From contig NC_036456.1 of assembly GCF_002775205.1 (NCBI RefSeq), positions 22,874,968 to 22,938,967 on the forward strand: a stretch of 64,000 bases of DNA, given 5' to 3'. The stretch comes from Xiphophorus maculatus (Eukaryota; Chordata; Actinopteri; Cyprinodontiformes; Poeciliidae). The notes under the pieces are model-generated. The model worked only from the letters and a program-made list of their open reading frames with translations, was not told the origin of the DNA and searched no databases. Position 1 is the first letter of the stretch, and each line of letters starts with the position of its first letter. A program made the position numbers and the translations under genes. Shown piece by piece: positions 7,905 through 63,705 of the stretch.

Positions 7905-7938
7905 GACACATTTATCTTAACATCACATCTAAAAGGAG

Positions 7939-16065: not shown

Positions 16066-16099
16066 CTCCTTTTAGATGTGATGTTAAGATAAATGTGTC

Positions 16100-17537: not shown

Positions 17538-17963
17538 AACTGGGCTGAGCTGATGACATGAAGAAGCTTCTACATCTTTTTATTTTCTATCTATGCTGCT
17601 TGAAAGATGTAGTGGCACAGCACATCAACAGAGGAACTCTGTCTTGCTTTTCATTAGATCAGACCAAATGTATAGTAAAGTAACAGCTTTATGTACTTGA
17701 TTAAATTTTCATTCTTGTTCTTTCCCAAATTAAACAGCAGGCATTAAAATATGCTGTCTGGATGTGTTTTTGTTTGGTGTGTAAAATGTTTTATTAGTTT
17801 AAGCAGTCTGGGTTCTCAGCTGCAGCTTTACCAAGTTAACTATTTGTATTGTACCTTGTATCAATCTGGTACATTTTGAAGGTTGAGTTTAAACCTTTAC
17901 ACAAAACATGGGCCAGTTCTGTAGCTGGGGGTGGACTAAACCAATAAACTCTGTTTGAATTCT

Positions 17964-35991: not shown

Positions 35992-36735
35992 ATGAAATTG
36001 TTGGCTGTGTTCTTCCTGGTCTTTCCCATGATGGCTCAGACCATTGCTGATGATGAGTATGCATTAAATAAAAAGCCATCATAAAGCGACTAAAACAGAC
36101 AAACACATTAGTTCCTGTTTTAAATATCTACAGCTGTCCCTGACGATGACTTGGTGATGGTCAGTGGGTGTTTATGTCAGTTTATTATTTCCTGAGTGCT
36201 CAGTCAGAACCCCAACCATAAAGTGACAAAAATACAAACACACTAACTCCAGATTAAAATATCCACACCTACTCATGATGATTTCTCTTTTTGTCGTGGT
36301 TTTTTATTTCCTGAGTGTGACGCCGACTCTAATCCATAGCAAATATGACACATACTGTACATGTTCTTGTAGTATACTTTATTAAAACATAACACATACT
36401 TTATCTTCAGATTATTTAATAGGCTTATCTTAAAATGTCTCCACTGCTCCTTGTAGTGGATCATAGTTTTGGTTGCACAAGTGTCATTTTGTTACATGTT
36501 GTCATTGAGGGATTTAGTCTGTAATCAACTTAATGTGACATCATTTTGATGTTATCGCCTGTCATAACATAAAGCCTTTATAAAACTAATGCTACAAACA
36601 CCATTTGATCTGAACTCTGCATTGTTTATCAGATCACGTTGACTTGACCTATTTCTTGTCCTTCTGGCTGGACTCCAATCAACAATCGCTGCTTCCGCTA
36701 TGTTTCCAAATGCATGAATTGGGCTATAAGCCGAG
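35992..36735 (+). pseudogene. psi5: broken lectin gene of the L6/L7 type
   Basis: The signal exon starts at 35992 (MKLLAVFFLVFPMMAQT). Its donor, GTGAGT in L6 and L7, reads ATGAGT here. The promoter block TATAAATATCCAGTGATTCT seen before L6 and L7 is missing (35830-35840 joins the flanks). The RCF exon survives at 36633-36735 (CPSGWTPINNRCFRY, MNWA) but has length changes that break frame on both sides of that motif. The WIGG, EPN and WDD exons are absent. This is a clear pseudogene. Confidence 0.8.
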
Positions 36736-36949
36736 GTGATTTTCAAACACTACACTCTTATTTTCTTTTGGTCTCCATTATTTCACAGTTCTTATGTAAC
36801 AAAGTCCAACTGCTTCTTCAGCTAACTGTTATGTGTTTATCTGTAGAAAAATATAATAAAGACAGTAAATACTGATTGATTGAGGCTTGGCTGTCTGTTC
36901 AAAATGCTGTTTCTGTTCAAGTTTAATCACAAATTCTTGAATTGATGTC

Positions 36950-42050: not shown

Positions 42051-43795
42051 GTTCTTTAGTTTACCAACAGATGGAAAAAGAAGTCCTATTTAATAGGACT
42101 CTGGTTTGGGAGAAAAGCTTGTTGTCAGTGGCCTGGTGGCTAACAGTGTCAGAGAAGTGACGGGTTTCAGTTTGGGCAAAAATTATTGTTTTCAAACCAT
42201 TTTCTAAAAACTGGGTCAAAACTGACCCCAACAACACAAAGGTCATCGTCTTTACCATAACCTTGTTCCTGAAACAAATGCAGCCATTTTAATGGAGGTG
42301 TAGTATGAGTCTGGTGAATACCAATGCTTATTAAATATACATCATATACTTATTAAGGTGTAAGAAATACTGAAAAATCTCAAATATTTGTGGATCTTAG
42401 CTCAAGGGTACCTCTGGTGCCAAGGGATCCATTGTACTTAAGTGTTGCAGGCATTTATACAGAGTTATCTGACATCCTCAATTAAATTCAAATGCTACCA
42501 AAAGTGCTAAGTTAGCAAAAGATAGTAAACTGATCACCTGTTTGTAATTTAATCACAGTAGAAATCCAGACATTCCTTAAAAGCCTCAGAGCTTTGTTGA
42601 TGAAGAAAATCCCATCTGATACATCAAGAGGTCAGGATTTGACCTGCAGTGCAGGAAATACTCAAACATGAGCTTGAAGAGATTATATGAAGGCAAAGCC
42701 TAATATTTCCTCTAACCCATGTTTCAAACTATATGCCCATTAAATTAAGATGTAATGATCCATTATATTTTTGCATAGTGGACTATGGTGGCTTGGTGGT
42801 GCTAAAAGCTCATTTTCTTTTTTATATTTGTAGCTCAATGAAGATGGCCGTTGACAAAGATGTAATCAGATATAAGTGTAGCAACTAGTACCAGCATGAG
42901 CTGTGCTTCAGATGTGAATGATGAGATGCAGATCACTAAAAGGGGGATTAACAGGCAACAAAAGACAATGAAGATCTCAACAACATCCTGCTTTTAGCCA
43001 GGAAGACAAACCAACATTCCTCCAAAGTTTCTCCAAATCATTCCCTGTACCCCACCAAACATCTTCAGACTTCAACACAGACAGCTCAATCGTCCTTAGG
43101 CTTCTTCAGCGTGCTCAACAGAATTTTGTGATCCACTGGATCAGAAGCAAAACTGAGATCTAGCAGGACAAGTAGAGACACAAGTTCATTATCTTAGGTC
43201 ATCAGAGTTTCATTAATGACTTTTAAAAGTGCTGTCACTGCAGTGATGGGCTCTAAAACCAGACAGAAACTTTCCAAACAGTGCTGTTTTACTGCTAACT
43301 GTCTTATTCCAGTTTGTTAGTTAGGAAGGGAAGGCGACTCAGAAGTTTATAACCGATTCGGTTTTCTTGATCAAGAGCTGATTGTTTTTAAATGCTTATA
43401 AATAGCAACACAAAGCTATGGGGATATTAATCAAATTAATCAAAGTTAGCTTTGAAGTGGCAGATTCCTTTGTAAGTTAATATTATTGAAAGCATGAAAG
43501 AATATCTTAGTGAAATTCAAAATGTAGTTTTTGCAAAGGATTCATGAAAGATATGAATATGCATGTTTAGATACCACATAGTGTAGACCTTAGTAAGGAT
43601 GACTTAGCAATTTGTAAAACCCTGAGAAAGTGAAGATACACAAAGTGACAGTTCTTAATTTATATTCTGATTTTATCTTAGGCATGTTTTTCTTCACCTA
43701 AGACTCCTTATTTCTTACCAGATTATTAAGCAAAATTAAACTCAATTTTATCAATTGAATATGTTTTTTTACATTTTAATATTTTTATGTTTCTT

Positions 43796-44110
43796 GCTTG
43801 GTAGCACAGTAGAGTAGTTGTCTTGTAGTAGTTGGATTGTTGTCTTGCAACAAGAGCACCGTTTCTGCATAGCATGTGTTCCCTCTGGGTACAGTGGCTT
43901 CCTCTGACCGTTTAAATATGAATGTTGGGTCAACAGGTCACTCTAAACTGTCCCTATGTGTCTATGAGTGTGGATGATTTTATGTCCTGTGTGTTTGTGT
44001 TGTCCTGTGATGGACTGGTGACATTTCCAGGGTCTACCTGCTTTGTCCCCACTGGAGAGAGACACCAGCAACACAGAGGCTGCACTGGTAAACAGGAACA
44101 GACGGTGGTG
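43796..44110 (+). repeat. Diverged SINE-like repeat, unit 2 copy
   Basis: GGTAGCACAGTAGAGTAG, GTTGTCTTGCAACAAGAGC, CCCTCTGGGTA and GTCCTGTGATGGACTGG place it in the same family as 25038-25325. The unit 3 copy is at 53824-54138, so it predates the tandem duplication. Confidence 0.6.
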
Positions 44111-44844
44111 GAGTGCTGAAATATTTTGGGCCCTTCCAAATTCATGAGCCATCTATGCCTACTAACACTGAGGTAGACATTGCACACTTTACTTTTAGAT
44201 TCAATTAACAAATAACATCACGATAAGTTTAAAACTTCATAATATTAGCAGATAAACATAAGGTGCATTAAGATGCAGCAAAGGCAAAATGTATGAAACT
44301 ATTAGTTGCACAACAACGGTTTTGTGCTCATGAAGCATTTCTCCCCTCAGACAGTTTTTCAGCTTTGGCTTGTTTTTTAGGCTTTCTTCCACTTGACCAT
44401 AAAGTCTCCCACATGCCATTTGGCACAAACTCCAGTCCAGGATTAATGAGCGTTTTCTGTAACAGTTACTTTCTCATTTCTACTCTCCCATAAAGCTCTG
44501 ACTGGTGAAGAACTAACGTGTTGTCTGCAGAGTCTTTCCCATCTGAGATGCTCATCCTTGCTATAATGTTAACTTTCTGCTCCTGTCTATGGGGTTAAAG
44601 GTCAGTTTTGACCCGTCTTTAAATCACTAAAAAATGTACTCAAAATGTTATTTTTGGCATATTTGTTTTGTAACTCTTGTTAACTTTATTAGGCTTCCTT
44701 TTTCATCAAAAAATATGTTTTAATATTTTTTGTGTGGTGTCCAGTGACTTTTTTTCAGCTTTCACATCATATTCAATTAGAAAAAAAGTTAAATGGTCTT
44801 TAAGAGAAACATTAATATATATTTGATATTTATATTATCTGACT

Positions 44845-46805
44845 AACCCTCGAACCCGCTGGTGGACACCTTCGGTGAGGGATGCCGTCAGGCTGAAGAA
44901 GGAGTCCTATCGGGCCTTTTTGGCCTGTGGGACTCCGGAAGCAGCTGATGGGTACCGGCGGGCGAAGCGGCATGTGGCTCGGGCGGTTGCTGAGGCAAAA
45001 ACTCGGGCGTGGGAGGAGTTTGGAAAGGCCATGGAGAAAGACTTCCGTACGGCTTCGAGGCGATTCTGGTCCACCATCCGGCGTCTCAGGGGGGGAAGCG
45101 GTGCAGCACCAACACTGTTTATAGTGGGGATGGTGTGCTGCTGACCTCTACTCGGGACATTGTGGGCCGGTGGGCAGAGTACTTCGAAGACCTCCTCAAT
45201 CCCACCAACATGCCTTTCACTGAGGAAGCGGAGCCTGGGGACTCTGGGTTGGGCTCTCCAATCTCTGGGGACGAGGTCGCCGAGGTGATTAAAAAGCTCC
45301 TCGGTGGCAAGGCCCCGGGGGTGGATGAGATCCGCCCGGAGTTCCTTAAGGCTCTGGATGTTGTAGGGTTGTGTTGGTTGACGCGACTCTGCAATATCGC
45401 ATGGACATCGGGGGCAGTTCCCCTGGATTGGCAGACTGGGGTGGTGGTCCCCCTGTTCAAAAAGGGGGACCGGAGGGTGTACTCCAATTATAGAGGGGTC
45501 ACACTCTTAAGCCTCCCTGGCAAGGTCTATTCGGGGATACTGGAGAGGAGGGTCCGTCGGATAGTCGAACCTCGGATTCAGGAAGAGCAGTGTGGTTTTC
45601 GTCCTGGTCGTGGAACACTGGACCAGCTCTACACCCTCGGCAGGGTTCTGGAGGGTGCATGGGAGTTCGCCCAACCAGTCTACATGTGTTTTGTGGACTT
45701 GGAGAAGGCTTTCGACCGTGTCCCTTGGGGAGCCCTGTGGGGGGTTCTCCGGGAGTATGGGGTACTGGGCCCTTTGATACGGGCTGTCAGGTCCCTGTAT
45801 GACCGGTGTCAGAGTCTGGTCCGCATTGCCGGCAGTAAGTCGGGCTCGTTTCCGGTGAGAGTTGGACTCCGCCAGGGCTGCCCTTTGTCACCGATTCTGT
45901 TCATCACTTTCATGGACAGAATTTCTAGGCGCAGCCAAGGTGTTGAGGGGATCCGATTTGGTGGCCTTAGGATCTCATCTCTGCTTCTCGCAGACGATGT
46001 GGTCCTTTTGGCTTCATCAGATCGTGATCTGCAGCTCTCGCTGGAGCGGTTCGCAGCCGAGTGTGAAGCGGCCGGGATGGGGATCAGTGCCTCCAAATCC
46101 GAGGTCAGGGTCTTGAGCCGGATAAGGGTAGAGTGCCTTCTCCGGGTCAGGGGGGGTGTCCTGCCCCAAGTGGAGGAGTTTAAGTATCTCGGGATCTTGT
46201 TCACGAATGAGGGAAGAAGGGAGCGGGAGATCGACAGGCGGATTGGCGCAGCGTCTGCTGTCAAGCGGGCGCTGTACCGGTCCGTCGTGGTGAAGAGAGA
46301 GCTGAGCCAAAAAGCGAAGCTCTTGATTTACCGGTCGATCTACGTTCCCTCCCTCATCTATGGTCATGAGGTTTGGGTCATGACCGAAAGAACGAGATCG
46401 CGGATACAAGCGACCGAAATGGGTTTTCTCCGTAGGGTGGCTGGGCTCTCCCTTAGAGATAGGGTGAGAAGCTCAGTCATCCGGGAGGGACTCAGAGTAG
46501 AGCCGCTGCTCCTTCACATCGAGAGGAGCCAGTTGAGGTGGCTTGGGCATCTGGTCAGGATGCCTCCTGGACGCCTCCCTGGTGAGGTGTTCCGGGCACG
46601 TCCCACCGGGAGGAGGCCCCGGGGAAGACCCAGGACACGCTGGAGAGACTATGTCTCTTGGCTGGCCTGGGAACGCCTCGGGATTCCCCCGGAAGAGCTA
46701 GAAGAAGTGGCCGGGGAGAGGGAAGTCTGGGCCTCCCTTCTGAAGCTGCTACCCCCGCGACCCGACCTCGGATAAGCGGAAGAAGATGGATGGATGGATG
46801 GATGG
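44845..46805 (+). mobile_element. RTE/Rex3-like LINE, longest copy, private to unit 2
   Basis: An 11-bp duplication attatctgact flanks it (44834-44844 and 46806-46816). Unit 3 has the empty site near 54866. The frame encodes a near-complete reverse transcriptase: QCGFRPGRGTLDQL, MCFVDLEKAFDRVPW (first catalytic Asp), GLRQGCPLSP and ADDVVLLAS (LADD where the other copies have FADD). It ends in the LPPRPDLG tail and GATGG repeats. The upstream part (44875 on) is in another frame; a run of G at about 45090-45096 marks the likely 1-base shift. The endonuclease domain is missing, so the copy is 5'-truncated. Confidence 0.9.
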
Positions 46806-47094
46806 ATTATCTGACTGTTACTGAGGAACATTAGAAAACATCTTATGAATAAATATAGTGTGTTCATTGATAATGAAAATAATATTATGATATTAACTAG
46901 AATCCCACTTATTCTAGCATCTCATATCTCCCATATGAGATGCTTAAGCTAGTAGCTCCTTCATAGGTGTCCTCAGTTTCCCTTTATAGTCACTCAGTTT
47001 TTATTTTAAGTCAACATCAACATGATGAAAGTGGACCTTGAGTAGTCTCTGGCACTGACCAGGTATATGCTCATTTAGGATAGCTGCACATATA

Positions 47095-47725
47095 TAGGCC
47101 TGTCACGATAACAAATTCTGCTGAGCGATTAATTGTCTCAAAAATTATTGCTATAAACGATAATATTGTTTGAAGACCTCTTTACGCTGATTTAATGGAA
47201 ATTATGTAATAATGCATGCGATTTCCTACCAAAGATAGATACACGTTATTTTCAAAAGAACACTTAACACGGGAACTGATAAACAAAACAAACAAAACAA
47301 TCAAAAACAAAAATAAGATGGATTCTCAGTCTCCATTAACAAAACATTTACTTGAATAAAAACTAAACAACATAAAGCCAAAGTGGAAATAAATACCGCA
47401 TTCAACCAAAAGAGTGCAGATTATGAAGTCTGTATATTATGTAGCCCTTCAGAAATAATTAGATTTAAATAGAGAAAATAGGATTCAATAGTTCACACTA
47501 CATGATTTTTTGCCCAGATTTTCCCCTTATTACAATCTTAGAATGTCCGCCATTCCAAGACTGTCGCTTGCGATTTCGTAACCGATCATCCTGTAGTGTG
47601 TGGTGTGTTACGGTAGATCGTCGTTGACGCTCCGATCTAAATCAGGGGTTTTTCCCGACTGGGAGCTTAACGCAGCCTGTTGAATGTGACAGGTATCCAA
47701 TCAGAAAGCACAGATTCCCTCCCTC
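47095..47725. mobile_element. Truncated hAT-like element in unit 2
   Basis: It starts TAGGCCTGTCACGATAAC and matches the first part of the element at 51314-52612. It stops near 47725, where sequence shared with unit 3 resumes (TTAAGGTTATCTTCC). The insertion removed flanking DNA that unit 3 still has (about 55440-55845). Confidence 0.65.
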
Positions 47726-48145
47726 TTAAGGTTATCTTCCTTTTTTGGTCTAAATAGAAATTAAATGATAAACATACACTAGAAGGAAAATAAATAGCAT
47801 TTATGATTGTAGGTGGAAGCAAAGATTTGCACTGTGACCTTTGAAAAAACTGCACCAAAAAACAATGGCTACCAACAAGAAGACTTTGTTGCCTGGTTGT
47901 TGGAAGCCAACGACGGCCTGGTTGGCTTCAGTGGCTTTCCTTGAGACGACATTTGTTGTGACTTGCCGCTGTATAGAACTCTTCTTGCTGCAACTGTCAC
48001 ATCCATGACGAGCACAAAGATGAGGTTTAGTTTTGCTCAATGGTGAATGATGAGGCAAGGTATGAACTAGATCAGGTTATGGGGTGCAATTCTGTGGAAT
48101 TTTTATCAGTGTCATTTCCTCATGTTGTGTCAAGACTAGAAGATC

Positions 48146-48151
48146 TATAAA
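48146..48151 (+). promoter_or_regulatory. TATA box of L6
   Basis: TATAAA in CTATAAATATCCAG lies about 50 bases before a likely untranslated exon ending CATTCTTCATCAG. It is conserved before L7 and deleted in psi5 and psi8. Confidence 0.65.
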
Positions 48152-48322
48152 TATCCAGTGATTCTACAGTGAAGGCAGAAGGTGCTAAGAAGACAGATCA
48201 TTCTTCATCAGGTTTGCTGATCAAATTTCTGCTCATCTTTTTTTCGACATGTTTGAATATTATTAACATTTATGCTTTATTTCAATTTGTCCTCCAGATT
48301 GCCTCATCACTAGATCTCCATC

Positions 48323-49994
48323 ATGAAGTTGTCGGTTGTTTTCCTTCTTGTTTTCTCCATGATGGCTCTGACCAGTGGTGTCAGGTACTTTCATCACGGT
48401 GAGTATTTATTCATTATGAAGCCCTGGTTAAGTTACTAAAACACAGAAACACAAACTAACTAGTTTAAAGTATCTACAGCTGCTCCAGATCATGGCTTTA
48501 CTGGTAAACATTATTTGGTGTTTTTTGTCATTGTTTTCTGATTTCCTAAGTGTGACTGCTTGGAACCCCAATTCTGATCCTTAGTAAATATGACATATCT
48601 TCTTGTAGTACACTTTACTAAAACACATCCTGTTTCTTCAGTATACTTTATAGATGTATTATTTTAATGTCTTTACTGTTCCTTGTACACACATCATGGT
48701 TATGGCCAGCACAAGTGTAACTGGTTTTCCTGTCATTGAGGGAGTTAGCTTTTTAAATAAATGTAATGTTGAGTCATTAAGATTAATGCCACATACACTA
48801 TTGGGTGTGCTGATAAATCAGCAGACATCTAAAGATCATCCACTGTCCTCTTCTGCTCTGCCATGAGAGATTTGACTGAGAAACCCGTCCAGCAGGTCAT
48901 GTTTGCTCATTTTCATTAAAAAATGGTCACCCTTTTGATGCCAACATAGTGACTTTTTTGCTATATTTAGCAAAAAAGCATATTTTTCAGACAAAAATAG
49001 AAAAATCAGTTTCAGCTAAAATGAGACTAGACAGGTCAGGCTTTTTAAAGTTTGATCAGCCAGAAAACTGGAGTCAGTGCACCTCTGACATACAGCTCTT
49101 GACTGGAAGTCTGCATTTGTTTGTTATCAGGACGATTTTACTGGCGGCATTTCAGGATCTGTCCTCATGGCTGGACTAAAATCAACAGTCGCTGCTTTCG
49201 CTATGTTGCCACACCCATGACTTGGGCGAATGCTGAGGTGATTTCCAACAAGAATGTTCTCTTAATTTCTTTTGCTATCTTTTATTTCACTTTTCTTGAT
49301 CAACAAAACCAACTAATACCTCAGAAAATTGCTAAAATAATTGTCTACTGCTCTTCACTATTCTCATTAAACACTACACCATTATTTGTTTTTCTGTAGA
49401 AAAACTGTCTGTCTATGGGAGCAAACCTTGCATCAGTTCACAACTTGTACGAGTACCACCAGATTCAGGCTATGATACATAGAAGAAGTTGTAATTCCAG
49501 AGAAGCATGGCTTGGAGGCACTGATGCACAGCAGGTATTTTTGCCAGTTCACTTTATTGTGTATTTTGTGAAACCCTGAATGAAATGTGTCATCTGCTGA
49601 ACACTATTCTAGGAGAGAACCTGGTTGTGGAGCGACGGACGTCCTATGAGGTACACAAACTGGTGTCGAGGAGAGCCTAACAATGCTGGAGGCACCCAGC
49701 ACTGTTTGCAGATGAACTTTTCAGGTAAAGGAAAATATCACACGTCTGTGTACATCACACTGTACATTTACTGTATCAACAGCAGGAGTTTATGCTCATT
49801 TTTGGGGGCAAGAAGGTTCATTTCATCATCCTTTCCAATCATTTTCTTAATACTGCGTCGGTCACTTCAGGGTTTCAGTACGTGATGTTTGACTGATATT
49901 TGTTCTCTTGCTTTTAGGTGCAAAGTGCTGGGATGACTTGTGGTGTAATCACAATCTACCTTCTGTCTGCGCCAAGAGATTCCGAAGACGGTGA
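48323..49994 (+). CDS. L6: secreted C-type lectin with basic N- and C-terminal tails, intact
   Basis: Exons 48323-48398, 49131-49237, 49400-49534, 49613-49724 and 49918-49994 join in frame (phases 1,0,0,1) to 168 residues. The signal peptide (MKLSVVFLLVFSMMALTSG) is followed by a basic aromatic stretch RYFHHGRFYWRHFR before the CTLD begins at Cys36 (CPHGW). Other motifs are RCFRY, MTWANAE, KNCLSM, WLGG, GEPNN (EPN 127-129) and CWDD. The protein ends in KRFRRR. L7 has the same plan. The basic ends are unlike L1-L3 and could bind membranes, nucleic acid or anionic sugars; that is inference. A possible AATAAA signal lies near 50265. The intron after the EPN exon is shorter than in L7. Confidence 0.9.
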
Positions 49995-51313
49995 GGTTCC
50001 CAAAGAGGCCTGATGTGTAAAACAGAACCAGTGGAGGATCAGTGCTAGGTGTTTCTGTTTACCTGCCTTTCTGCAGCTTCATAGAAAACCCAAAAGATAT
50101 TTCTGCTTCTTTACTTCATATAATTTCTCTCTTTACTGCAAACTAAGGAACGAAGCGATAAGCAAACAGCAGCTGGATCGTCTCTCTTTAATAAGAGCAG
50201 ACTGAATGAGTTATAAGAAAAAATTATCTATGCAAAACTTTCTTCTATTCTTTGGCCAAGCAAAAATAAAATTTTGAGGAATCAAAACAAGATGGTGTGT
50301 GGTTTATTCTGTCTTTGTGTTGTTCTGATTTAACATTATCATACACTAGTTATTACAATTTAAATAATACATTATATCAAATAACTTTTTACATTTTTAA
50401 TACATAGTATTTCTGTACAAATATGATTATTTTATTGTTCAAGCATCAAAAAGATATGTTTTCTTGTGCAACATTTCAAGTTCACATACAAATTATGATA
50501 TTCCAAAAACACAATTTTTTAGATTTATACAACTTTTAAGTTTTGTCAGCAAACATTTTCCTCTCCCGTCTCCACCATTAAATAATGTCATAGATGTGTC
50601 ATTATTTCCTGAATCCCTATGCAAAGAAAAACATTTCAAAAATATATTTCATGATTAAGAATAACAATCGTTTGAAATGGGTGAAGAAAGGAATAGCTTG
50701 GGAACAGGATCAGGATGACACATTACTAAGGGGTATTCACACTTCCTCTATCTGCACTAGACAGTGTCTAATACAATTTGAGGTTTTACATGCATTGCTC
50801 TAATGATAAACTTTCTGGAATATACCAGTACTTTTCAGATGCCATGCAGACAAAGCTACTGTAGATTTTACATTTTGGTCTTGTCAACTATTAAACAGCT
50901 TTTGAGAAAACTTCTTCCTTTGTTGCCCGGAAGGTTTGCCTGGTGCAACAGCTTCTTCCTCATGTAGGACTCCTACATGAGGCATAAGTGGCGTTTGTAC
51001 TGTTAAAATGGCAGCTATAAACATTTTTAGAAGAGATCTCAAATGTGTGGATCTGAACTTGTGACCGGCTCTGCTCTCTAATCCCAGTGGACACCAGGGA
51101 TCCATTGTATTTATATGTAGTATGCATTTATGTTGAGCCATCTAAAATCCCTAACTAATTCAAGTGTTACAAAAAGCTAGCAAAAACAGTAAAAAGTTCA
51201 CCAGTTTGTAATTTAATCACTGTTTTAATCCAGGTATTTTTTGATTTTTTTTTTTATTGTCAAGGAAAATCCCATCTGAGACATCGAGGTCAGGATTTGG
51301 CCTGCAGTGCACC
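49995..51313. other. L6 3' UTR and downstream unit 2 DNA
   Basis: This stretch holds the L6 3' UTR to about 50290, then AT-rich DNA shared in part with 58640-59850 after L7. No gene is seen. Confidence 0.5.
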
Positions 51314-52612
51314 TAGGCCTGTCACGATAACAAATTTTGCTGAGCGATTAATTGTCTCAAAAATTATTGCAATAAACGATAATATTGTTTGAAGACCTCT
51401 TTACACTGATTTAATGGAATTGACGTAATAACGCATGTGATTTCCTGCCAAAGATAGATGCACTTTATTTTCAAAAGAATATTTAACACTGGAACTGATA
51501 AACAAAATAAACAAAACAACCAAAAATAAGATGGATTCTCAGTCTCCATTAATAAAACTTTTACTTGAATAAAAACTAAACAACATAAAGCCAAAGTGGA
51601 AATAAATACTGCATTCAACCAAAAGAGGGCAGATTATGAAGTCTGTATACTATTTAGCCCTTCAGAAATAATTAGATTTAAATAGAGAAAATGGGCACAT
51701 CGACTACCTGATACAATAGTTCACACTACATGTTTTTTTTGCCCAGATTTTCCCCTTACAACAATCTTAGAACATCCGCCGTTCTAAGATTGTTGTTTGC
51801 GATTTCGTAACCTATCATCCTGTAGTGTGTGGTGTGTTATGGTAGATCTTCGTGGCCTCTTTGACTGGGAGCTTTAACACAGCCTGTTGACTGTGACAGG
51901 TAGCCAATCAGAAAGCACAGATTCCCTCCGTGCTTTCTGAGGGGAAATTATGGAGGGGAATCCCAAACAGCTGACACGAAGCAACCCAAAGTCCAGCCGA
52001 TGATATGTTGAAACAACATTAATGTTTATTCAACATTTTGTGCAAAGAATATAGAAATGACAAGGAGAGGAGTTGGAGTGATATTGCTACCGCAGTTGAT
52101 AAACCCGGTAACTTTTCAGCTGTTCTTCATTACGTGACATAAATTGGTTGTAATGATTTTCATTCAGTCAGGACTTTACGCTGACACTAGCCACATGCAT
52201 TGCAGGTAGATTGTAGTAAAGCATTGATTAATGCCTGGTTTTAAAATTAGGTAACTGAACTTGTAGCCATTATTTTGTGCCCATTGTTGGACACCACACG
52301 GCAGGATCGAACCCGATCAAACTGTTATACCTAGGATTTCTGTCGGCTAGTTTGTTTTCTCTCAGGTTTTGAAAATGGGCCGACAATTGGCCGACAGCTC
52401 TAAGATTGTGCAGTGTGCGCTGGGCATTACACTAAGGATATGAGGAAAGGAGGGTCAGTGGAGAGCACCGGAGTTGAGCCTTTTTTCGTTCAGTGTCATC
52501 AACAGAAAGAGAAAGACGCCGGAAGAGAAGATAAAGCCGAAAATTAAAATGAGGTTGATAGTTTTAATTTATTGTACGATTAATTGATGTATTGTTTATC
52601 GCGACAGGCCTA
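51314..52612. mobile_element. hAT-like non-autonomous element between units 2 and 3
   Basis: The ends TAGGCCTGTC and GACAGGCCTA are inverted repeats. The flanks agtgcacc (51306-51313) and agtgcagg (52613-52620) match at six of eight bases, consistent with an old 8-bp target duplication. Unit 2's own start (42647) shows the uninterrupted site. The interior has no open transposase. A related, diverged copy may lie at 62440-62640. Confidence 0.7.
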
Positions 52613-53823
52613 AGTGCAGGAAATATTCAGATGTGAGCCAGAAGAGGTTGTATGAAGGTAAAACCTCAATAGTTCCTCTAGTCTATGTTTAAAACAAGAG
52701 AAATGACTTGGTGTTCTTTTTGCAGGAGGGTGCAGTACAAGGTATGAACAGCAGATGGTGCCAATAATAGTGCCATGTCATTTCATGTAAAAATGTGTTA
52801 TGTGTTGACTATACATAAAGGGCTTTAGTGTTCCTAAATACTCCATTCCTTTTTATATTTGCAGCTCAGCAAAAACAGCCTTTGACAAAGATGTAATCAG
52901 ACAAAAGACTAGTAACTAATACCAGCATAAGCTGTGCTTCAGATGTTAATGGTGAGTTGCAGATCACTGAAAGAAAGACAAACAAGAAGCTGCAAAAAGA
53001 GGCTGAATATCGCAGAGAGCTGTCAGCACAAAGGACGATTCACCAGGAGAAAGAGACTATCAACAAAATACAATGAAGGACATCAGATCTCAACAACATT
53101 CTGCTTTTCATTCCCTGTACCCCACCAAACATCTTCAGACTTCAACACAGACAGCTCAGTCGTCACTGGATCAGAAACAGAACTGAGATCTAGCAGGACA
53201 AGTAGAGACACAAGTTCATTATCTTAGGTCATCAGAGTTTCATTAATGACTTTTAAAAGTGCTGTCACTGCAGTGATGGGCTCTAAAACCAGACAGAAAC
53301 TTTCCAAACAGTGCTGTTTTACTGCTAACTGTCTTATTCCAGTTTGTTAGTTAGGAAGGGAAGGCGACTCAGAAGTGTATAACCGATTCGGTTTTCTTGA
53401 TCAAGAGCTGATTGTTTTTAAATGCTTATAAATAGCAACACAAAGCTATGGGGATATTAATCAAATTAATCAAAGTTAGCTTTGAAGTGGCAGATTCCTT
53501 TGTAAGTTAATATTATTGAAAGCATGAAAGAATATCTTAGTGAAATTCAAAATGTAGTTTTTGCAAAGGATTCATGAAAGATATGAATATGCATGTTTAG
53601 ATACCACATAGTGTAGACCTTAGTAAGGATGACTAAGCAATTTGTAAAACCCTGAGAAGGTGAAGAAACACAAAGTGACAGTTCTTAATTTATATTCTGA
53701 TTTTATCTTAGGCATATTTTTCTTCACCTAAGACTCCTTATTTCTTGCCAGATTATTAAGCAAAATTAAACTCAATTTTACCAATTGAATATGTTTTTTT
53801 ACATTTTAATATTTTTATGTTTC

Positions 53824-54138
53824 TTGCTTGGTAGCACAGTAGAGTAGTTGTCTTGTAGTAGTTGGATTGTTGTCTTGCAACAAGAGCACCGTTTCTGCAT
53901 AGCATGTGTTCTCTCTGGGTACAGTGGCTTCCTCTGACCGTTTAAATATGAATGTTGGGTCAACAGGTCACTCTAAACTGTCCCTATGTGTCTATGGGTG
54001 TGGATGATTTTATGGTCTGTGTTTGTGTTGTCCTGTGCTGGACTGGTGATGTTTCCAGGGTCTACCTGCTTTGTCCCCACTGGAGAGAGACACCAGCAAC
54101 ACAGAGGCTGCACTGGTAAACAGGAACAGACGGTGGTG
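53824..54138 (+). repeat. Diverged SINE-like repeat, unit 3 copy
   Basis: This is the near-identical partner of 43796-44110 by tandem duplication, with a few substitutions and a short deletion near 54015. Confidence 0.6.
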
Positions 54139-55057
54139 GAGTGCTGAAATATTTTGGGCCCTTCCAAATTCATGAGCCATCTATGCCTACTAACACTGAG
54201 GTAGACATTGCACACGTTACTTTTAGATTCAATAAACAAATAACGTCACGATAAGTTTAAAACTTCATAGTATTAGTAGATAAACATTAGCTGCATTAAT
54301 ATGCAGCAAAGGCAAAATGTATGAAACTACTAGTTGCACAACAACGGTTTTGTGCTCATGAAGCATTTCTCCCCTCAGACAGTTTTTCAGCTTTGGCTTG
54401 TTTTTTAGGCTTTCTTCCACTTGACCATAAAGTCTCCCACATGCCATTTGGCACAAACTCCAGTCCAGGATTAATGAGCGTTTTCTGTAACAGTTACTTT
54501 CTCATTTCTACTCTCCCATAAAGCTCTGACTGGTGAAGAACTAACGTGTTGCATGCAGAGTCTTTCCCATCTGAGATGCTCATCCTTGCTATAATGTTAA
54601 CTTTCTGTTCCTGTCTATGGGGTTTAGGGTCAGTGTGGAACCGTCTTTAAATCACTAAAAAATGTACTCAAAATGTTATTTTTGGCATATTTGTTTTGTA
54701 ACTCTTGTTAACTTTATTAGGCTTCCTTTTTCATCAAAAAATATGTTTTAATATTTTTTGTGTGCTGTCCAGTGACTTTTTTCAGCTTTCACATCATATT
54801 CAATTAGAAAAAAAAGTTAAATGATCTTTACGTGAAACATTAATATTTATTTGATATTTATATTATCTGACTGTTACTGAGGAACATTAGAAAACATCTT
54901 ATGAATCAATATATTGTGTTCATTGATAATGAAAATAATATTATGATATTAACTAGAATACCACTTATTCTACCATCTCATATCTCCCATATGAGATGCT
55001 TAAGCTTGTAGCTCCTTCATAGGTGTCCTCAGTTTCCCCTTATAGTCACTCAGTTTC

Positions 55058-55345
55058 TGTGGATGACAAATGGGCAAATTGCTTTTACTGTTCTTGGTGT
55101 AAAGGTCCACACACACTTGGGGGTACTTCAGTCTGCGGAGGTCCGCATGTACTCGAGGCAGACTCAACACAGACTAGAAAGGAACATCTGCCATACATGC
55201 CCACCCAAAGACCAATTTTTACCACGGTGTATGCGTACTCGGTGTCGCACAGTAAACTCCCTGGTGGAAACAGTGTTCACATCAAACTGTTTTTAATGTG
55301 ACACCAAGATGATAAGGTTGAGAATAGTTTTTACATCACTTCATA
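55058..55345. other. Block of about 290 bp present only in unit 3
   Basis: Unit 2 near 46997 joins CACTCAGTTT directly to TTATTTTAAG. Unit 3 carries this extra DNA between the same flanks. It is more GC-rich than its surroundings and open on the plus strand (55063-55296). No domain, inverted ends or tail is recognised. Confidence 0.6.
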
Positions 55346-56234
55346 TTATTTTAAGTCAACATCAACATGATGAAAGTGGACATTGAGTAGTCTCTGGCAC
55401 TGACCAGGTATATGCTCACTTAGGATATCTGCACATATAGATTTAAAATTATTACGTCAACCACAACTGTGCTATTGGAACACAATAAACTAAGATTAAT
55501 ATGATCGGATTCCATTTGATTAGTTAATTTCATCAAAGCTTGCTGCTGCTCCGATGCACAGCAGGATGCTGCGATGGCTCAACAGTGGCTCGCTGACTTG
55601 CTCGCAGCATGATGATGTGACTGCCATTTTCTGTCCCACACTGAAGCTGAGGCTTTCCAGATGGAGAAGAAACAGAGTTTGGTGTCAACTAGCTCATCAA
55701 ATTTGCTAGTTTCCATTATGATTGTGAGAAATAAAGGAATTTGTCACAAGGAAATAGGCAGTCAGAACGTTCGAATATTAAGTCTCAAATGAACGTGCTG
55801 CTCACGAACTGTCCAGTATGTTCAAGTACTGTATGTGGGGACATTAAGGTTATCTTCCTTTCTGTTCTAAATAGAAATTAAATGATAAACAGACACTACA
55901 AGGAAAATAAATAACATCTATGATTGTAGGTGGAAGCAAAGATTTGCACTGACCAACTGCACAAAAAAAACAAAGGCTACCAACAAGAAGTTAACAACCA
56001 GGCGCATTAAAGTATAGGCCTTAGTCGCTACACTTTCCGTTAATTTTCGTGGAACATTAATTCTAAGAACTCTTCTTGCCACAACTGTCAACCATGACGA
56101 GCACAAAGATGAGGTTTAGTTTTGCTCAATGGTGAGTGATGAGGCAAGGTATGAACTAGATCTCGTTATGGGGTGCAATTCTGTGGAATTTTTATCAGTG
56201 TCATTTCCTCATGTTGTGTCAAGATTAGAAGCTC

Positions 56235-56240
56235 TATAAA
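56235..56240 (+). promoter_or_regulatory. TATA box of L7
   Basis: TATAAA in CTCTATAAATATCCAG, in the same context and spacing as before L6. Confidence 0.65.
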
Positions 56241-56410
56241 TATCCAGTGATTCTACAGTGAAGGCAGAAGGTGCTAAGAAGACAGATCATTCTTCATCAG
56301 GTTTGCTGATCAAATTTCTGCTCATCTTTCTTTTGACATGTTTGAATATTATTAACATGTATGCTTCATTTCAGTTTGCCTCCAGCTTGCCTCATCACTA
56401 GATCTCCATC

Positions 56411-58325
56411 ATGAAGTTGTCGGCTGTTTTCCTTCTTGTTTTCTCCATGATGGCTCTGACCAGTGGTGTCAGGTACTTTCATCGCGGTGAGTATTTATTT
56501 ATTATGAAGCCCTGGTTAAGTTACTAAAACACAGAAACACAAACTAACTAGTTTAAAGTATCTACAGTAACTTCCTTATACACACATCATGGTTATGGCC
56601 AGGACAAGTGTAACTGGTTTTCCTGTCATTGAGGGAGTTAGCTTTTTAAATAAATGTAATGTTGAGTCATTAAGATTAATCCCACATACACTATGGGTGT
56701 GCTGATAAATCAGCAGACATCTAAAGATCATCCACTGTCCTCTTCTGCTCTGCCATGAGAGATTTGACTGAGAAACCCGTCCAGCAGGTCATGTTTGCTC
56801 ATTTTCATTAAAAAATGGTCACCCTTTTGATGCCAACATAGTGACTTTTTTGCTATATTTAGCAACATTTGAAACAAATAATAATAATAAGAGTTTGCTA
56901 AAATTGGAATCAACAGGTCAGACTTTTTAAATGTTGATGAGTCAGTGAACTGTAATCAGTGCACCTCTGACATACAGCTCTTGACTGGAAGTCTGCATTT
57001 GTTTGTCATCAGGACGATTTTACTGGCGGCATTTCAGGATCTGTCCTCATGGCTGGACTAAAATCAACGGTCGCTGCTTTCGCTATGTTGCCACACCCAT
57101 GACTTGGGCGAATGCTGAGGTGATTTCCAACAAGAATGTTCTCTTAATTTCTTTTGCTATCTTTTATTTCACTTTTCTTGATCAACAAAACCAACTAATA
57201 CCTCAGAAAATTGCTAAAATAATTGTCTACTGCTCTTCACTATTCTCATTAAACACTACACCATTATTTGTTTTTCTGTAGAAAAACTGTCTGTCTATGG
57301 GAGCAAACCTTGCATCAGTTCACAACGCGTACGAGTACCGCCGCATTCAGGCTATGATACGTGCAGGAAGTTGCAGTTGCAGAGAAGCATGGCTTGGAGG
57401 CTCTGATGCACAGCAGGTATTTTTGCCAGTTCACTTTATTGTGTATTTTGTGAAACCCTGAATGAAATGTGTCATCTGCTGAACACTATTCTAGGAGAGA
57501 ACCTGGTTGTGGAGCGATGGAAGTCCTATGAGGTACACAAACTGGTGTCGAGGAGAGCCTAACAATGCTGGAGGCACCCAGCACTGTTTGCAGATGAACT
57601 GGTCAGGTAAAGGAAAATATCACACGTCTGTTTTTTCAGTTGATAAAAGGTCTTGTGGGTGAAAAGCTTATTTACTCTGCATGTAAACGTTTTCGCAGAC
57701 ACACATCTGAAGTTAAATCAGACAGAAAACAGAATTACCCAAATTATTTCCAATTGCTACATTGCAAGAAAAACTAAATATTTCTCTGAGATGTATTTGT
57801 AATTTTTTTTCTCATTCAGATGTTTTCATTCATTTTGGTCAGTATCAGGGATAAATGTCTTTTAAACTGTATGAATCTTTAGGTTTTCTGACCAAAATGT
57901 GTAAACTTCTTAATTTGAAGAAAATTACAAAAATGGTCTCTCAAATGGTTTAGTTTTCTGGCATTTATTGAAAAGAAATAATTCTAGTAACTAACTTACA
58001 TAAAAAAAGTTAAGTTTGTACTTATTTAGCTTCAGACAAGATACAAATTGTGTATGTGTTTTCATTTGGTATGTATACGTCTGGTTTTAACTGTACATTT
58101 ACTGTATCAACAGCAGGAGTTTATGCTCATTTTTTGTGGGAAGAATTTTCATTTCATCATCCTTTCCAATCATTTTCTTAATACTGCGTCGGTCACTTCA
58201 GGGTTTCAGTACGTGATGTTTGACTGATATTTGTTCTCTTGCTTTTAGGTGACAAGTGCTGGGATGACTTGTGGTGTAATCACAATCTACCTTCTATCTG
58301 CGTCAAGAGATTCCGAAGACGTTGA
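56411..58325 (+). CDS. L7: secreted C-type lectin with basic tails, intact paralogue of L6
   Basis: Exons 56411-56486, 57013-57119, 57282-57416, 57495-57606 and 58249-58325 join in frame to 168 residues with the same plan as L6. After the signal peptide comes RYFHRGRFYWRHFR, then CPHGW, RCFRY, KNCLSM, WLGG, GEPNN, CWDD and the KRFRRR end. It differs from L6 at 17 residues, with only three synonymous codon changes. Nine changes are in the 135-base WIGG-type exon, including a new Cys (SCSC) and several His/Gln to Arg. The introns on both sides of that exon (57120-57281 and 57417-57494) read identical to L6. A possible AATAAA signal lies near 58595. Confidence 0.9.
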
Positions 58326-58639: not shown

Positions 58640-60200
58640 CTGTCTTTGTGTTGTTCTGATGTTTCTATTATTTTTAACACAATCATAAATGAGTTATTAA
58701 AAAACAAACATCACCTTATAACAAAGAACGTTTCACATTCTCAATATACAGTATTTCTGTGTGAAGGTGATTTATTGTTCAAGCATAAAAAAATGTTTTC
58801 TTGTATAACATTTCATATTCGCATACAAATTACTTTTTTAGATTCATACAACTTTTAAGTTTTGTCCGCAAACATTTTCCTCTCCCATCTTCACCCATGT
58901 AAAATGTCATAGATGTAATATTTGCACTGAATCCCTATGCAAAGAAAAATATTTCAAATATATATTTTATGATTCAGAAAAATTAGACAGTGTCTAACAC
59001 AATTCAAGGTTTCACATCATCTGCATTACTCTAATGACAACTTTCTAGAATATTCTCCAGTTCGTTTGAGATGCCACGCAGACAAAGCTACTTTAGGTCA
59101 TATATTTTGGTGTTGTCAACTATTAAACAGCTTTTGGGGAACTTCTTTCTTTGTTGTCCGGAAGGTTTGCCCGACGCAATAGCTTCTCCACATTAGCACA
59201 AATTTAAAGCAACAGCATTTGCCTCATTAATGGCTCACAGACTCAATCTTCTCCAGAGGAAGTCTAACAAGCCCCCAGCTGGACTACAGAGATGATATCC
59301 ATGCTACACTTAGACAAAATAAGGAATACCAAAATGGGATGCTATGAAAAATTCAGAGAGACCTGGTCTTCATTGGCTGAATTGGTAAAAACATTTCAAA
59401 GACTATTGGTAGTCTGTGCCTTTAGTGGCTTCAATGCATATATTTGTACTATGGAGGTACCTGCCCCTTTGAGCCCTCTCTTTTATTTATTGATAAATGT
59501 ATATATACACATTTATATACATTTATTTATATTAATTTTCTCTGTTGCTCGGATTTCATTCTCTCAGAAAGACTGAACACGGGGTTTCTTTGTTTATGTT
59601 TTGTTAATATCTTATCTAACTATATTTTACTCCTTAAGGTTATTTGAAAAATATACAAATAAGGTAAAAAAAAAAAAATCTTATCTTGTCTGTCTTGTTT
59701 GAAATTTGGAATAAAAGTAAGCGCAGAGTTAAAATGCATATTAAAGCATATGTGGCGTTTGAACTATTAAAATGGCAGCTAAAAACATTTTTAGAGGAGA
59801 TCTGAAATGTGTGGATCTGAGCTTGTGATCGGCTCTGGTCTCTAATCCCAGAGAAAAGTCTTAATATCACTGTAAGTAAATTTCTTTCCACTCTTCTTTG
59901 CAAAAATGTTTTCATGCAACTTTATTAGGTTTTCAAGTATGAACGGCCTGGTTAAAGTCACACTTCATAAAATGATCCAGGCCCAGGCCAGAAATCATAG
60001 TTGGTTTGCTCTTTGACTAGGCCACTCCAGTACCTTTGCTTTGTTAGTCTTTAAATCATTTCTGCTGTGTAGTTTAGTTGGATGCTTTGGATTCTTGCTT
60101 TGCTGGAAAATAAATATTCTCTGAAGCTGTAGTTCTTTTGCAGATTAAATAAATTATCATCCAGGATTTTTTTATATTTTGATGCATTTATTTAACCTGT
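58640..60200. other. DNA downstream of L7
   Basis: 58640-59851 is in part homologous to the DNA after L6 but more diverged. 60000-60180 is a DNA-transposon-like repeat shared with 36950-37130. Weak frames only; no gene. Confidence 0.45.
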
Positions 60201-60439
60201 GCAATTATGTGGAAATACTGTGAAATTGCCCCGAGTTGTAACAAAATTAGAAGTATCCAGTGATTCCTCAGTGAAGGTAGAAGGTGCTGGCTGGCTAAGA
60301 AGAAGGATCATCCTTCATCAGGTTTGATGACCAATTTTCTGCCCATCTTTTTTTCGACACATTTGAATTTTAGTAACATGTATGCTTTACTTCGATTTGC
60401 CTTCAGTGTGCAAATTTGCATCATCGCATCATCTCCATC

Positions 60440-61645
60440 ATGAAGTTGTTGGCTGTATTCCTCCTCTTTTTCTCCATGTCGGCTAAGAGCAGTGGTGACC
60501 GTGAGTGTTTTAAGTATAATGACATTATAAAGTGACTAAAACACAGAAACACAAATTAACTCCAGTTTCAAATATCTACAGCTCTCCAGATTATGACTCT
60601 GCTGACAAACATTGTTTGGTGTTTTTTTTTTTTGTTGGCTCTAGTGGTCTGTTATTTTAAAGTAGTTTGACAAGAAACAGGGTAATGAGAGAGGAGGAAG
60701 ACATGCGGCAAATATCGCCAGGCCGGGAATCGAACCTGTGACCACTGTCACGAGGACCAAGGCCTCAATACGTTGGTCGTGCTTTGCCCCCGCCTCACCA
60801 CAGCACCACATATTTGGTGTTTTTTGACATTGTTTCCTAAGTGTGACTGCTTGGAACCCCAAATCTGATCCATAGTAAATACGACATACCTTATTGTAGT
60901 ACACTTTACTAAAACACATACTTTTTCTTCAGTATATTTCATAGATTTATTATTTTATTGAATTCACTGTTCCTTCATGGACCATAACACATCATGGTTA
61001 TGGTCTGCACAAGTGTCACTGGGTTATTTATTGTCCTCGAGGGATTTATCTTTTTTAATAAATGTAATGTTCTGTCATCAAGACTAATGCAACATACACG
61101 AGGGGTGTGCTGATAAATTAGCCAGCCGGTAAATTCACCCCAATTTTCTTAATTTTGGGAGATCTGTGATCTGTTGATACTTACAGAAGAAACCGATATT
61201 TTCCACCTCTCCTATCTAGGCCTAAAGGTCAACCACTGTCCTCTTCTGCTCTGCCAGGTCTGTCAGAGTCAGCAGGTCATGTCTGCACATTCGCATTAAA
61301 CAATAATCACCCTTCTGTTGACTTTCTTGGTATATTTAGCAACATTTCAGACAAAAGGAAAAAAATCAGAATCACGACAGGCGTCTGAAAGATGGTGATT
61401 GGCAATCGGACAGAAAACTGTAATCAAGGCTCTGATGCACAGCAGGTATTTTTGCACCTATGCCTTATGTGTTATGCATTTTGTGAAACATTGAATGAAA
61501 TGTGTCATCTACTGAACACTTTTCTAGGAGGGAAATTGGTTGTGGAGCGATGGAAGTCCCATGCTGTACAAAAACTGGTGTTGAGGAGAGCCTGATCATT
61601 TTAGAAACAGCCAGCAGGTGTACTGTTTATAGATGAACTGGTCAG
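60440..61645 (+). pseudogene. psi8: broken lectin gene of the L6/L7 type
   Basis: The signal exon at 60440-60500 (MKLLAVFLLFFSMSAKSSGD) is intact with a GTGAGT donor. The TATA segment seen before L6/L7 is deleted. Near 61424 intron DNA (AACTGTAATCA, as at 56948) joins directly to the end of the WIGG exon (GGCTCTGATGCACAGCAG), so the RCF exon and most of the WIGG exon are deleted. The EPN exon (61528-61645) has TGG TGT TGA, a stop where L6 has CGA, and a second stop TAG near 61630. The last exon is missing. Confidence 0.85.
60640..60815 (-). repeat. tRNA-derived SINE inside psi8 intron
   Basis: The minus strand shows a tRNA-like head with Box B GGTTCGATTCCC (about 60727-60738), then TTTGCCGCATGTCTTCC and CCTGTTTCTTGTCAAACTAC, ending in CAGACCACTAGAGCC. 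This is a common fish SINE type. It differs from the 25038 family. Confidence 0.65.
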
Positions 61646-63705
61646 GTAAAGAAAATATCACGGCCATTTTTTCAGCTGGTATCAGGACTCCTGGGTGAAA
61701 AGCTATTTACTCTACATGTAGACATTTTATTTGACCTTCACATACAGTTGACCTGCATTTGACCCAAGTCATTCAGCTTAAGACAGATATCCCTGATACT
61801 GAATAAACTTATGTAAATTTCTGGATTGGATGAAAAATGTTCTGGCTAAGTTTTCTGGTATTTACCAAATAGAAATAATTTTGGTAATCCTAACAAGTTT
61901 GGTCTGATTTAACCTCAAAGAGTAGGAAAAAAAAATTGTGTTTTTATTTTGCGTATGTAAATATCTGGCTACATCTGTAAATTTACTGCATTAACAGGAG
62001 CTTATATTAATTGTTTTTGGAGAAAGATACTGCAAACAGTTAGGCCCTTCAACAGTTAATAATCAGGACAAAGTATCTGACATAGCGTAAAATGGAGGGG
62101 AGAAAAATTATATAAAATTTCTATGAGATTTCAAAATAAAGCTTTAAAATCTTACAAATCATTCAAGAAGAAGATGGAAAGTCAGTGGAAAACATGCAAA
62201 GCAGAAATGTGAGTGTGTAAGTCCGCCCAGAGGTGGAGAATAGATAGTGTTTGAAAGGTGAGAAGATAAAGAGTTAGAATGTAAAAACTGCATAAATAAG
62301 ATCTGGTTTGAAAGTGAGGTCATGCAGAGGAACAGGGGGATTCTCCACTGGCAAAGAAAGAGCTGAAATGTTCAACTTTGAGCATTAGATGGCGCAGTGT
62401 GAGAATAATTTAGGCGATATATTCTGGGTCACACAGTGGATGTGTGTGTTGTTTTTATATTCATTGTGATAAATGATAATATTGTTGTTTTGAGACCATT
62501 TTCAAGTAATATTATGGTAATGACATAATAATGCAAGAACATATTCTCAAAGATCAATAAACTTGAAATTCTGATGAACATTTATCACTGGAATTGGAAG
62601 ACATTTTAAATATCCAAAATAAACAAACATACCAACAGAAATGACAAATGAAATGAACTGTAGATTCTCTAAAGAAAATTGAAATTCATAAAAATGGGCA
62701 AGTTGAGACCAAAGCACCAGACTAAAGACTTTTGTCGTAGAAAGATAGAGAAAGAAAGAGAAAAACAATTAATCATGCAAATGGAAAAAATCTACAAACT
62801 GAAAAAAATCTAAATCTGTTAGGCTAAATCTAATTAACCAAACTTGTTGCACACCTGGTGTGGGTCTGTTCAGGAGTGACCAATCAGCTGCCAGGCAGGC
62901 AAACGGCAGAAATGTGTGGAAGGAAAAAGGGCGGATCCAGAAACCAGGCTAAGAGGTGAGGACAGCCTGAAGGTCAGGAGGTCAGGAGACTCACATGGAG
63001 ACAAGCTGACTAACATAACATGGTGCCCGACCCAGCAACGGAAACAACAGGGCGGCAGGGAAAACTCTGCACGTGTCATGAAGTCCTGTGTGGGAGTGTT
63101 CTCATGGCATTTTAAAGGTTCAGTTTTTAACGCGCTTTTTATTGAGTCCATTTCCTTTTTCTTCTTGTTGTTGGGAATAAAAGCAAAAGAAGACAGTGGT
63201 TGAGTTTTAGAGCTAATTTATTCTTTAAAACAAAGATATTTACATGTTTGGCACTAAAGTTTTTCTTAAATGTAGTATTAAGACAGAATGAACACAATGT
63301 GCCTGAAGGTTTGAACTGCACCAACCAGGTTGTGTTTTCAAGTTCATTTTTTTGCATGACAGTGACTGAAATGGGTCAAAGTTCAAACCAACAACTGCAG
63401 ATGTTTGAAAGATAGTAAAGTCTACTCCAAAAGTTTGATTCAAACTTCACAAAAATATATTTAAGTTACTCTCTTCTACCAGATCACAAACCAAACATTA
63501 GCTGTGGAATAATATTTTAGTTTAAGACAAAACTGTGGGGTCTGTCTGAGCTGATGTGACATCAGAGTTTCCCCAAGAAACTTTAGCGACCGAAGCAAGA
63601 TTTTGTGTAGAAAAACAATATTCACCAAAACACAAATCATCTGTAAACCGAAAATATTCAAAATATTCTGACCTGATCAGTTGGCGGATACGGGCAGTGA
63701 TGCGT
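61646..63705. other. Right-hand intergenic region, no gene accepted
   Basis: 62440-62640 resembles the hAT family of 51314 (GATAAATGATAATATTGTTGTTTTGAGACC, ACATAATAATGCA) in diverged form. 62880-63100 is more GC-rich without a convincing frame. A minus-strand poly(A)-like TTTATT lies at 63220. Confidence 0.4.

What the first reader, a model, noticed from the sequence alone, without database searches (positions are those of the whole stretch)
49238..57494. L6/L7: lectin exon full of replacements between identical introns
Comparing 49400-49534 with 57282-57416 I count 13 base differences in 135, changing nine codons and leaving one synonymous. The intron before (162 bases) and the one after (78 bases) read identical between the copies. 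Over the whole coding sequence there are 17 replaced residues and three synonymous changes. Neutral drift cannot give a diverged exon between unchanged introns. Strong diversifying selection, or conversion from another paralogue limited to exons, would. Fast-evolving venom and immune gene families show this pattern.
Basis: seen in the sequence. Interest (0 to 1): 0.88.

Follow-up and report, generated by a model that had tools for sequence, protein, structure and literature searches.

The report
Divergent exon patch between near-identical lectins
Two neighbouring lectin genes, probably of a fish, are nearly identical except for a short, fast-changing stretch of one exon; the likeliest cause is that DNA exchange between the copies evened out most of the gene but not this stretch, a pattern already known from colour-vision genes.

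Summary
L6/L7 exon 3 differ at 13/135 bases (9 replaced codons, 1 silent). Introns 2 and 3 differ at 0/162 and 0/78. The coding sequence has 17 replaced and 3 silent codons.

The contrast is weaker than stated. Both genes sit in a shared duplication (about 43.1-50.3 kb vs 53.2-58.7 kb) with 2.4% ordinary noncoding divergence; exons outside one 76-bp patch differ by 2.8%, the same. Introns 1 and 4 hold diverged patches too. Over the whole gene, exon enrichment is not significant (circular shift p=0.26).

What stands out is the 76-bp exon-3 patch (13/76, 17%), as diverged as the unhomogenised flank (53/310). Silent sites also exceed the identical noncoding parts (p=0.0003), so point-mutation selection alone fits poorly. 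No donor was found. In four neighbouring paralogues, without L6/L7, the same codons have dN/dS near 1.8 (p about 0.03), but not when a distant copy is added.

Best reading: patchy gene conversion around a hypervariable segment that escaped it. A known kind: opsin L/M exon 5; herring/smelt type II antifreeze genes look alike.

The parts
48323..48398 (+). L6 exon 1 (start codon, signal-like peptide)
   Evidence: 2/76 differences to L7 56411-56486
48974..49073 (+). diverged patch inside intron 1 of L6 (noncoding)
   Evidence: 29/90 differences to L7
49131..49237 (+). L6 exon 2
   Evidence: 1/107 differences to L7 57013-57119
49238..49399 (+). L6 intron 2, identical to L7 57120-57281
   Evidence: 0/162
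49400..49534 (+). L6 exon 3
   Evidence: 13/135 differences to L7 57282-57416
49445..49520 (+). the divergent patch, codons 77-102 (L7 counterpart 57327-57402)
   Evidence: 13/76 bases, 17 of 26 residues identical; hypervariable in paralogues
49535..49612 (+). L6 intron 3, identical to L7 57417-57494
   Evidence: 0/78
49613..49724 (+). L6 exon 4 (EPN motif)
   Evidence: 4/112 differences to L7 57495-57606
49804..49816 (+). small diverged cluster in intron 4
   Evidence: 5 differences in 13 bp
49918..49994 (+). L6 exon 5 with stop codon
   Evidence: 5/77 differences to L7 58249-58325
49995..50328 (+). identical 3' stretch (L7 58326-58659)
   Evidence: 0/334
56411..58325 (+). L7 gene: exons 56411-56486, 57013-57119, 57282-57416, 57495-57606, 58249-58325
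43150..44844 (+). upstream part of the shared duplication (counterpart about 53181-54872)
   Evidence: 37/1692 differences; the only two full-length matches among 40 scored of 295 candidates in the genome
50329..50664 (+). unhomogenised flank (counterpart about 58660-58982)
   Evidence: 53/310 differences

Best explanation
L6 and L7 are C-type lectin genes (secreted, by inference) in a tandem cluster. Shown: pieces of the two units have different divergences. Outer flanks are 17-31%, a shared stretch of about 7 kb is 2.4% in its ordinary noncoding DNA, introns 2-3 and the 3' end are identical, and a 76-bp piece of exon 3 (26 codons) is 17%. Shown with reservations: those 26 codons are hypervariable in neighbouring paralogues. 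Inferred: repeated non-allelic gene conversion homogenised most of the unit, while the exon-3 segment kept older differences. Selection against conversions that overwrite this variable segment is the likely reason; chance is not excluded.
For: Patch 13/76 equals the unhomogenised flank 53/310 (p=1.00) and exceeds the modal 59/2487 (p=8.5e-8); a dN/dS of 1.9 on the modal age does not reach it (p=3e-5). Exons outside the patch match the modal rate (12/431 vs 2.37%, p=0.61), while 0/574 in introns 2-3 plus 3' stretch is too low for it (p=1e-6). Silent sites are elevated against these identical parts (p=0.0003). The other two hot windows in 43.1-50.3 kb are noncoding, so patchiness is general. In B1-C1 a patch divergence of 17% goes with 23% and 19% in introns 2 and 3. 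Patch dN/dS 1.76-1.81 without L6 and L7. The 43.15-44.84 kb piece was full length only beside L6 and L7 among 40 scored of 295 candidates.
Against: Isolated exon-4 and exon-5 differences (1-2 bp between identical runs of 42-115 bp) need many short tracts or new mutations after conversion. Silent sites are not above the modal rate (p=0.16). In other old pairs the patch outruns intron 3 (L6-C1 32% vs 17%), so the age match depends on the pair used. The intron-1 patch is even more diverged (29/90, p=0.03 against the exon patch). A dN/dS near 5 on the modal age would also reach 13/76 (p=0.11). With distant A2 included, patch dN/dS is 1.04-1.21, not significant. No sister species or population data could be tested.
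Confidence: 0.55

Rival explanations
1. After a recent whole-gene homogenisation or duplication, point mutations under very strong positive selection changed both exon-3 segments.
For: Replacements outnumber silent changes 17 to 3; the same codons have dN/dS 1.76-1.81 in B1, C1, B2, B3; derived states occur in both copies; dN/dS near 5 on the modal age suffices for 13/76 (p=0.11).
Against: Silent sites exceed the identical noncoding parts (p=0.0003); pairwise dN/dS 1.36 is not above 1 (p=0.80); the family-wide dN/dS of 1.9 is too low for 13/76 on the modal age (p=3e-5).
Confidence: 0.2
2. One copy received the patch by short conversion from a third lectin gene that is lost, on another haplotype, or not assembled.
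For: The 13 changes form one block; noncoding blocks of high divergence exist in the same duplication; B1 agrees with L7 at 8 of 13 sites.
Against: No donor within 3 mismatches of either 54-bp patch, or 2 of a 24-bp L7 core; next-best DNA matches to the gene are 68-83% identical.
Confidence: 0.18
3. Assembly or polishing artefact made the introns look identical or the exon look different.
For: Near-identical tandem copies are prone to it (general knowledge); raw reads were not available.
Against: Copies lie 7.9 kb apart on one contig with different flanks; L6 and L7 are the only near-identical pair in the 19 matches found; changes keep both frames open and fall in a segment that is variable in other copies.
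Confidence: 0.05

Closest known systems
Primate L/M opsin genes (exon 5 divergence peak)
   Same: Tandem duplicates with exon divergence above homogenised introns; silent sites elevated as well; dN not significantly above dS (PMC3213168 passages; PMC3924837 passages).
   Different: There the functional sites and selection against conversion are supported by several species and population data; here neither is known, and introns 1 and 4 also carry diverged patches.
Herring and smelt type II antifreeze protein genes
   Same: C-type lectin-like genes; no-gap identities in Table 1: introns 1, 3, 4, 5 96.1-97.1%, exons 1, 2, 4, 5, 6 87.5-90.8%; dN/dS near 1 (PMC2440524 passages).
   Different: A comparison between species, explained there by lateral transfer; exon 3 is 98.8%; the authors' own text calls introns and exons equally well conserved outside intron 2.
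ASSET, accelerated segment switch in exons (snake three-finger toxins)
   Same: Short exon segments differ while introns stay similar (PMC2474615 and PMC2711939 passages).
   Different: Switched toxin segments are 12.5-50% identical; this patch is 83% identical in DNA (63/76) and 17 of 26 residues.
GOT1p1/GOT1p2 of the copepod Tigriopus californicus
   Same: Islands of divergence persisting under gene conversion (PMC3728101 abstract).
   Different: Metabolic enzyme with population data; only the abstract was seen.

Membership tests
C-type lectin domain proteins (PF00059) | Match above the curated cut-off | tested here: met
   65.8 and 66.5 bits vs 22.6
Fish type II antifreeze proteins | Sequence relatedness to solved type II AFPs | tested here: met
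   2py2 E=5e-29, 2afp 1.6e-28, 6jk4 4.7e-28; large lectin receptors score higher, so this shows relatedness only
Fish type II antifreeze proteins | Ice binding | not testable with these tools
   needs protein
Divergence peak kept under gene conversion (opsin kind) | Exon divergence above flanking homogenised introns | tested here: inconclusive
   Met for 49074-50328 (shift p=0.04), not for larger spans (p=0.25-0.43)
Divergence peak kept under gene conversion (opsin kind) | Silent sites also above homogenised introns | tested here: met
   4.0/86.3 vs 0/574, p=0.0003
Divergence peak kept under gene conversion (opsin kind) | Introns group by species, exons by locus | not testable with these tools
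   no sister-species genome held (note: no relatives)
ASSET segment switching | Exon segment replaced by an unrelated one (12.5-50% identity) | tested here: not met
   63/76 identical
Accelerated exon evolution (venom-gene kind) | dN/dS above 1 in the pair | tested here: not met
   1.36, p=0.80; patch 2.1, p=0.72
Accelerated exon evolution (venom-gene kind) | dN/dS above 1 across the local family | tested here: inconclusive
   Patch=1 rejected at 0.05 in 14 of 15 runs without A2, in 0 of 3 runs with A2

The most novel reading that the evidence does not exclude
The cluster actively diversifies a 26-codon segment of its lectins by exon-confined, block-wise exchange while conversion keeps the rest of each gene uniform: a germline diversification system for a fish lectin, comparable in effect to the segment switching proposed for snake toxins.
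Probability: 0.12. Interest if true: 0.7.

Novelty: new member of a known kind. Interest (0 to 1): 0.42.

Why it matters
It is a compact natural case of gene conversion and diversification pulling against each other in a lectin array, with hypervariable and homogenised DNA side by side. It also warns that intron identity between paralogues is not a clock for exon selection. Herring and smelt type II antifreeze genes, lectin relatives, show exons below introns in identity (PMC2440524, Table 1 as seen), so the same question arises there.

Tried and rejected
Donor paralogue: none found in this assembly. Same pattern in other pairs: B2/B3 looked like a second case (note). One search gives B2/B3 exons 2-5 26/409 against introns 24/889 (p=0.003) and against all noncoding (p=4e-5), but introns 2-4 alone are 20/419 (p=0.36); the low part is the 5' flank, exon 1 and intron 1. 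Its exon 4 remains high (12/109). C1/C2, C1/C3 and A2/A3 show no exon excess over introns (p=0.49, 1.0, 0.66). So of 5 pairs only L6/L7 has the contrast clearly, and only locally. Adjacent double changes: 5 among 23 exonic differences vs 3 among 37 and 3 among 19 noncoding; not used. An 8-12% uniform age of the duplication (note) was dropped: the modal value is 2.4%. My notes place the intron-4 cluster and some divergences wrongly; one search gives 49804-49816. Assembly collapse: see rivals. Relatives in other species: database off. Structure prediction was not run, because a spliced protein is not given letter for letter by the window. Paper searches on fish lectins, conversion and introns listed no paper on this cluster in the rows shown; that is no proof of absence.
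Full report
OBSERVATION. Alignment confirms every number given. Exon 3 differs at 13/135, introns 2 and 3 at 0/162 and 0/78, and the 334 bp after the stop codon at 0/334. The coding sequence has 17 replaced and 3 silent codons of 168. Both genes encode 168-aa proteins with a signal-like start (judged by eye), a C-type lectin domain (PF00059, 65.8 and 66.5 bits, cut-off 22.6) and an EPN motif (its sugar meaning is recalled). Among solved structures the best matches to L6 are large multi-domain lectin receptors; the best single-domain matches among the 60 shown of 210 are fish type II antifreeze proteins (2py2, E=5e-29). The genome has 704 Mb in 101 contigs and a large lectin family: 150 scored matches from 510 candidates, a lower bound. 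That it is a teleost is inferred.

WHERE THE DIFFERENCES LIE. All 13 exon-3 changes fall in 49445-49520; the first 45 bases are identical. Intron 1 holds a patch with 29/90 differences, and intron 4 has 5 differences in 13 bp and a roughly 450-bp indel. Exonic differences exceed noncoding ones for 49074-50328 (23/431 vs 6/815; circular shift p=0.04), but not significantly for 48679-50328 (p=0.25), 48000-50328 (0.26), 43100-50328 (0.30) or 43100-50664 (0.43).

AGE OF THE DUPLICATION. Among 40 scored of 295 candidate matches to 43150-44844, only those beside L6 and beside L7 (98%) are full length; the other 38 are shorter and at most 84% identical. Modal noncoding divergence is 59/2487 (2.37%); this count takes 43150-44844, 47001-47094 and 48000-48973 without exons, and leaves out the patchy pieces. 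At the ends it rises to 53/310 after 50328 and 19-31% per 100-bp bin before 43.1 kb, near the divergence from other copies (70% identity between the two sides at 42.8 kb, 77-80% to a third copy at 39.9 kb). Exons outside the patch (12/431) are at the modal rate (p=0.61), with dN/dS 0.98. Runs of 257 identical bases occur both around intron 2 and in plain noncoding DNA at 43347-43605. Windows of 76 sites with 10 or more differences merge into three places in 43.1-50.3 kb: 47807-48044 (poorly alignable), 48918-49105 and 49417-49536 with the exon patch.

SELECTION OR CONVERSION. Pairwise dN/dS is 1.36 (p=0.80) for the coding sequence and 2.1 (p=0.72) for the patch. Silent sites of the mature part are elevated over introns 2-3 plus the 3' stretch (4.0/86.3 vs 0/574, p=0.0003) but not over the modal rate (p=0.16). 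Gibbon L/M opsins show the same signs: exons above introns, silent sites included, dN not significantly above dS; the authors explain it by conversion in introns and selection against it in exons (PMC3213168, passages).

DONOR AND POLARITY. Whole-genome DNA search with 49100-49760 gave 19 matches, all on C14: L6 100%, L7 97%, the other 17 at 68-83%. The 54-bp patches of L7 and L6 (up to 3 mismatches) and a 24-bp L7 core (up to 2) match only themselves. At the 13 sites, B1 agrees with L7 at 8 and L6 at 4; C1-C3 with L7 at 5 and L6 at 7; B2, B3 and A1 agree mostly with L6 (7, 8, 7 against 2, 1, 3); A2 and A3 with L6 at 6 and L7 at 5. In exon 4, L8 has the L7 base at 4 of 4 sites; the other 9 copies have it at the first two and not at the last two, 7 of them agreeing with L6 at the last. 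In exon 5, B1 and C1-C3 have the L6 base at 4 of 4 alignable sites (of 5); B2, B3, A2 and A3 share one L7 base; the exon-2 site is mixed. So both genes seem to carry derived changes, with no single donor.

FAMILY-WIDE HYPERVARIABILITY. In old pairs the patch is more diverged than the first 45 bases of the exon (e.g. L6-B1 23/76 vs 4/45). In the 12 pairs patch pN exceeds pS in 11, two of these on a single change; L6-A2 is the exception. With distant A2 included it is 1.04-1.21, not significant in 3 of 3 runs; the fourth run of that call, without A2, gave 1.94 (p=0.003). The patch was delimited on L6/L7, not on the test copies. Conversion can distort such tests, the sets hold 4-7 sequences, and C1 may be decaying. 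Of the C copies only C1 was used; of 35 full codons in exon 2 only 26 entered, with 45, 36 and 18 of exons 3, 4 and 5.

COMPARISON. A divergence peak at a functional exon between homogenised introns is known from human opsin exon 5 (PMC3924837, passages) and discussed for copepod GOT1 paralogues (PMC3728101, abstract). Herring and smelt type II antifreeze genes have introns at 96.1-97.1% and exons 1, 2, 4, 5, 6 at 87.5-90.8% (exon 3 98.8%), dN/dS near 1 (PMC2440524, passages with Table 1; also PMC3499448, passages). Those authors call both kinds about equally conserved and argue for lateral transfer between species, which does not apply to tandem copies. ASSET in snake toxins concerns segments of 12.5-50% identity (PMC2474615 and PMC2711939, passages); here the patch is 83% identical, so it fails that test. 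The patch's place in the fold (second helix and the loop before the WLGG strand, away from the EPN site) is recalled from the C-type lectin fold and was not modelled.

VERDICT. Real, correctly counted, and best seen as a mosaic of conversion with one hypervariable coding segment left out. It is a new member of a known kind.

Noticed in passing
49400-49534 vs 57282-57416: In exon 3 all 9 differences between A/T and G/C have G/C in L7 (9:0, p=0.004), while the other exons show 6:6. GC-biased repair, or loss of G/C in L6, could cause it; B1 shares the G/C state at several of these sites.
   Followed up: partly
5127-11261 vs 12826-17864: Large inverted duplication (93-96% identical pieces) carrying lectin copies A2 (minus strand, about 5463-6268) and A3 (plus strand, about 16701-17534) in opposite orientation.
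   Followed up: partly
44994-46775: Open frame of 593 aa with a reverse transcriptase domain (PF00078), between the two parts of the L6 side of the duplication and missing from the L7 side; related pieces at 1373-2285 and 17968-18829 (97-98%).
   Followed up: partly
60200-62020: L8, a lectin pseudogene: most of exon 3 not found, in-frame stops in exon 4.
   Followed up: partly
L032, L034, L035 (C14:24.35-24.47 Mb): Lectin copies C1-C3 share a lost cysteine in exon 5 (also in the partial copy of L033), and C2 has a one-base deletion in exon 2; a decaying side branch.
   Followed up: partly
L029 9833-9940 vs L030 4950-5057: Exon 4 of the B2/B3 pair differs at 12/109 bases, with two clusters of nearly consecutive changes; no donor search was made for it.
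   Followed up: no
35992-36800: Lectin fragment with exon-1-like and exon-2-like parts only.
   Followed up: no
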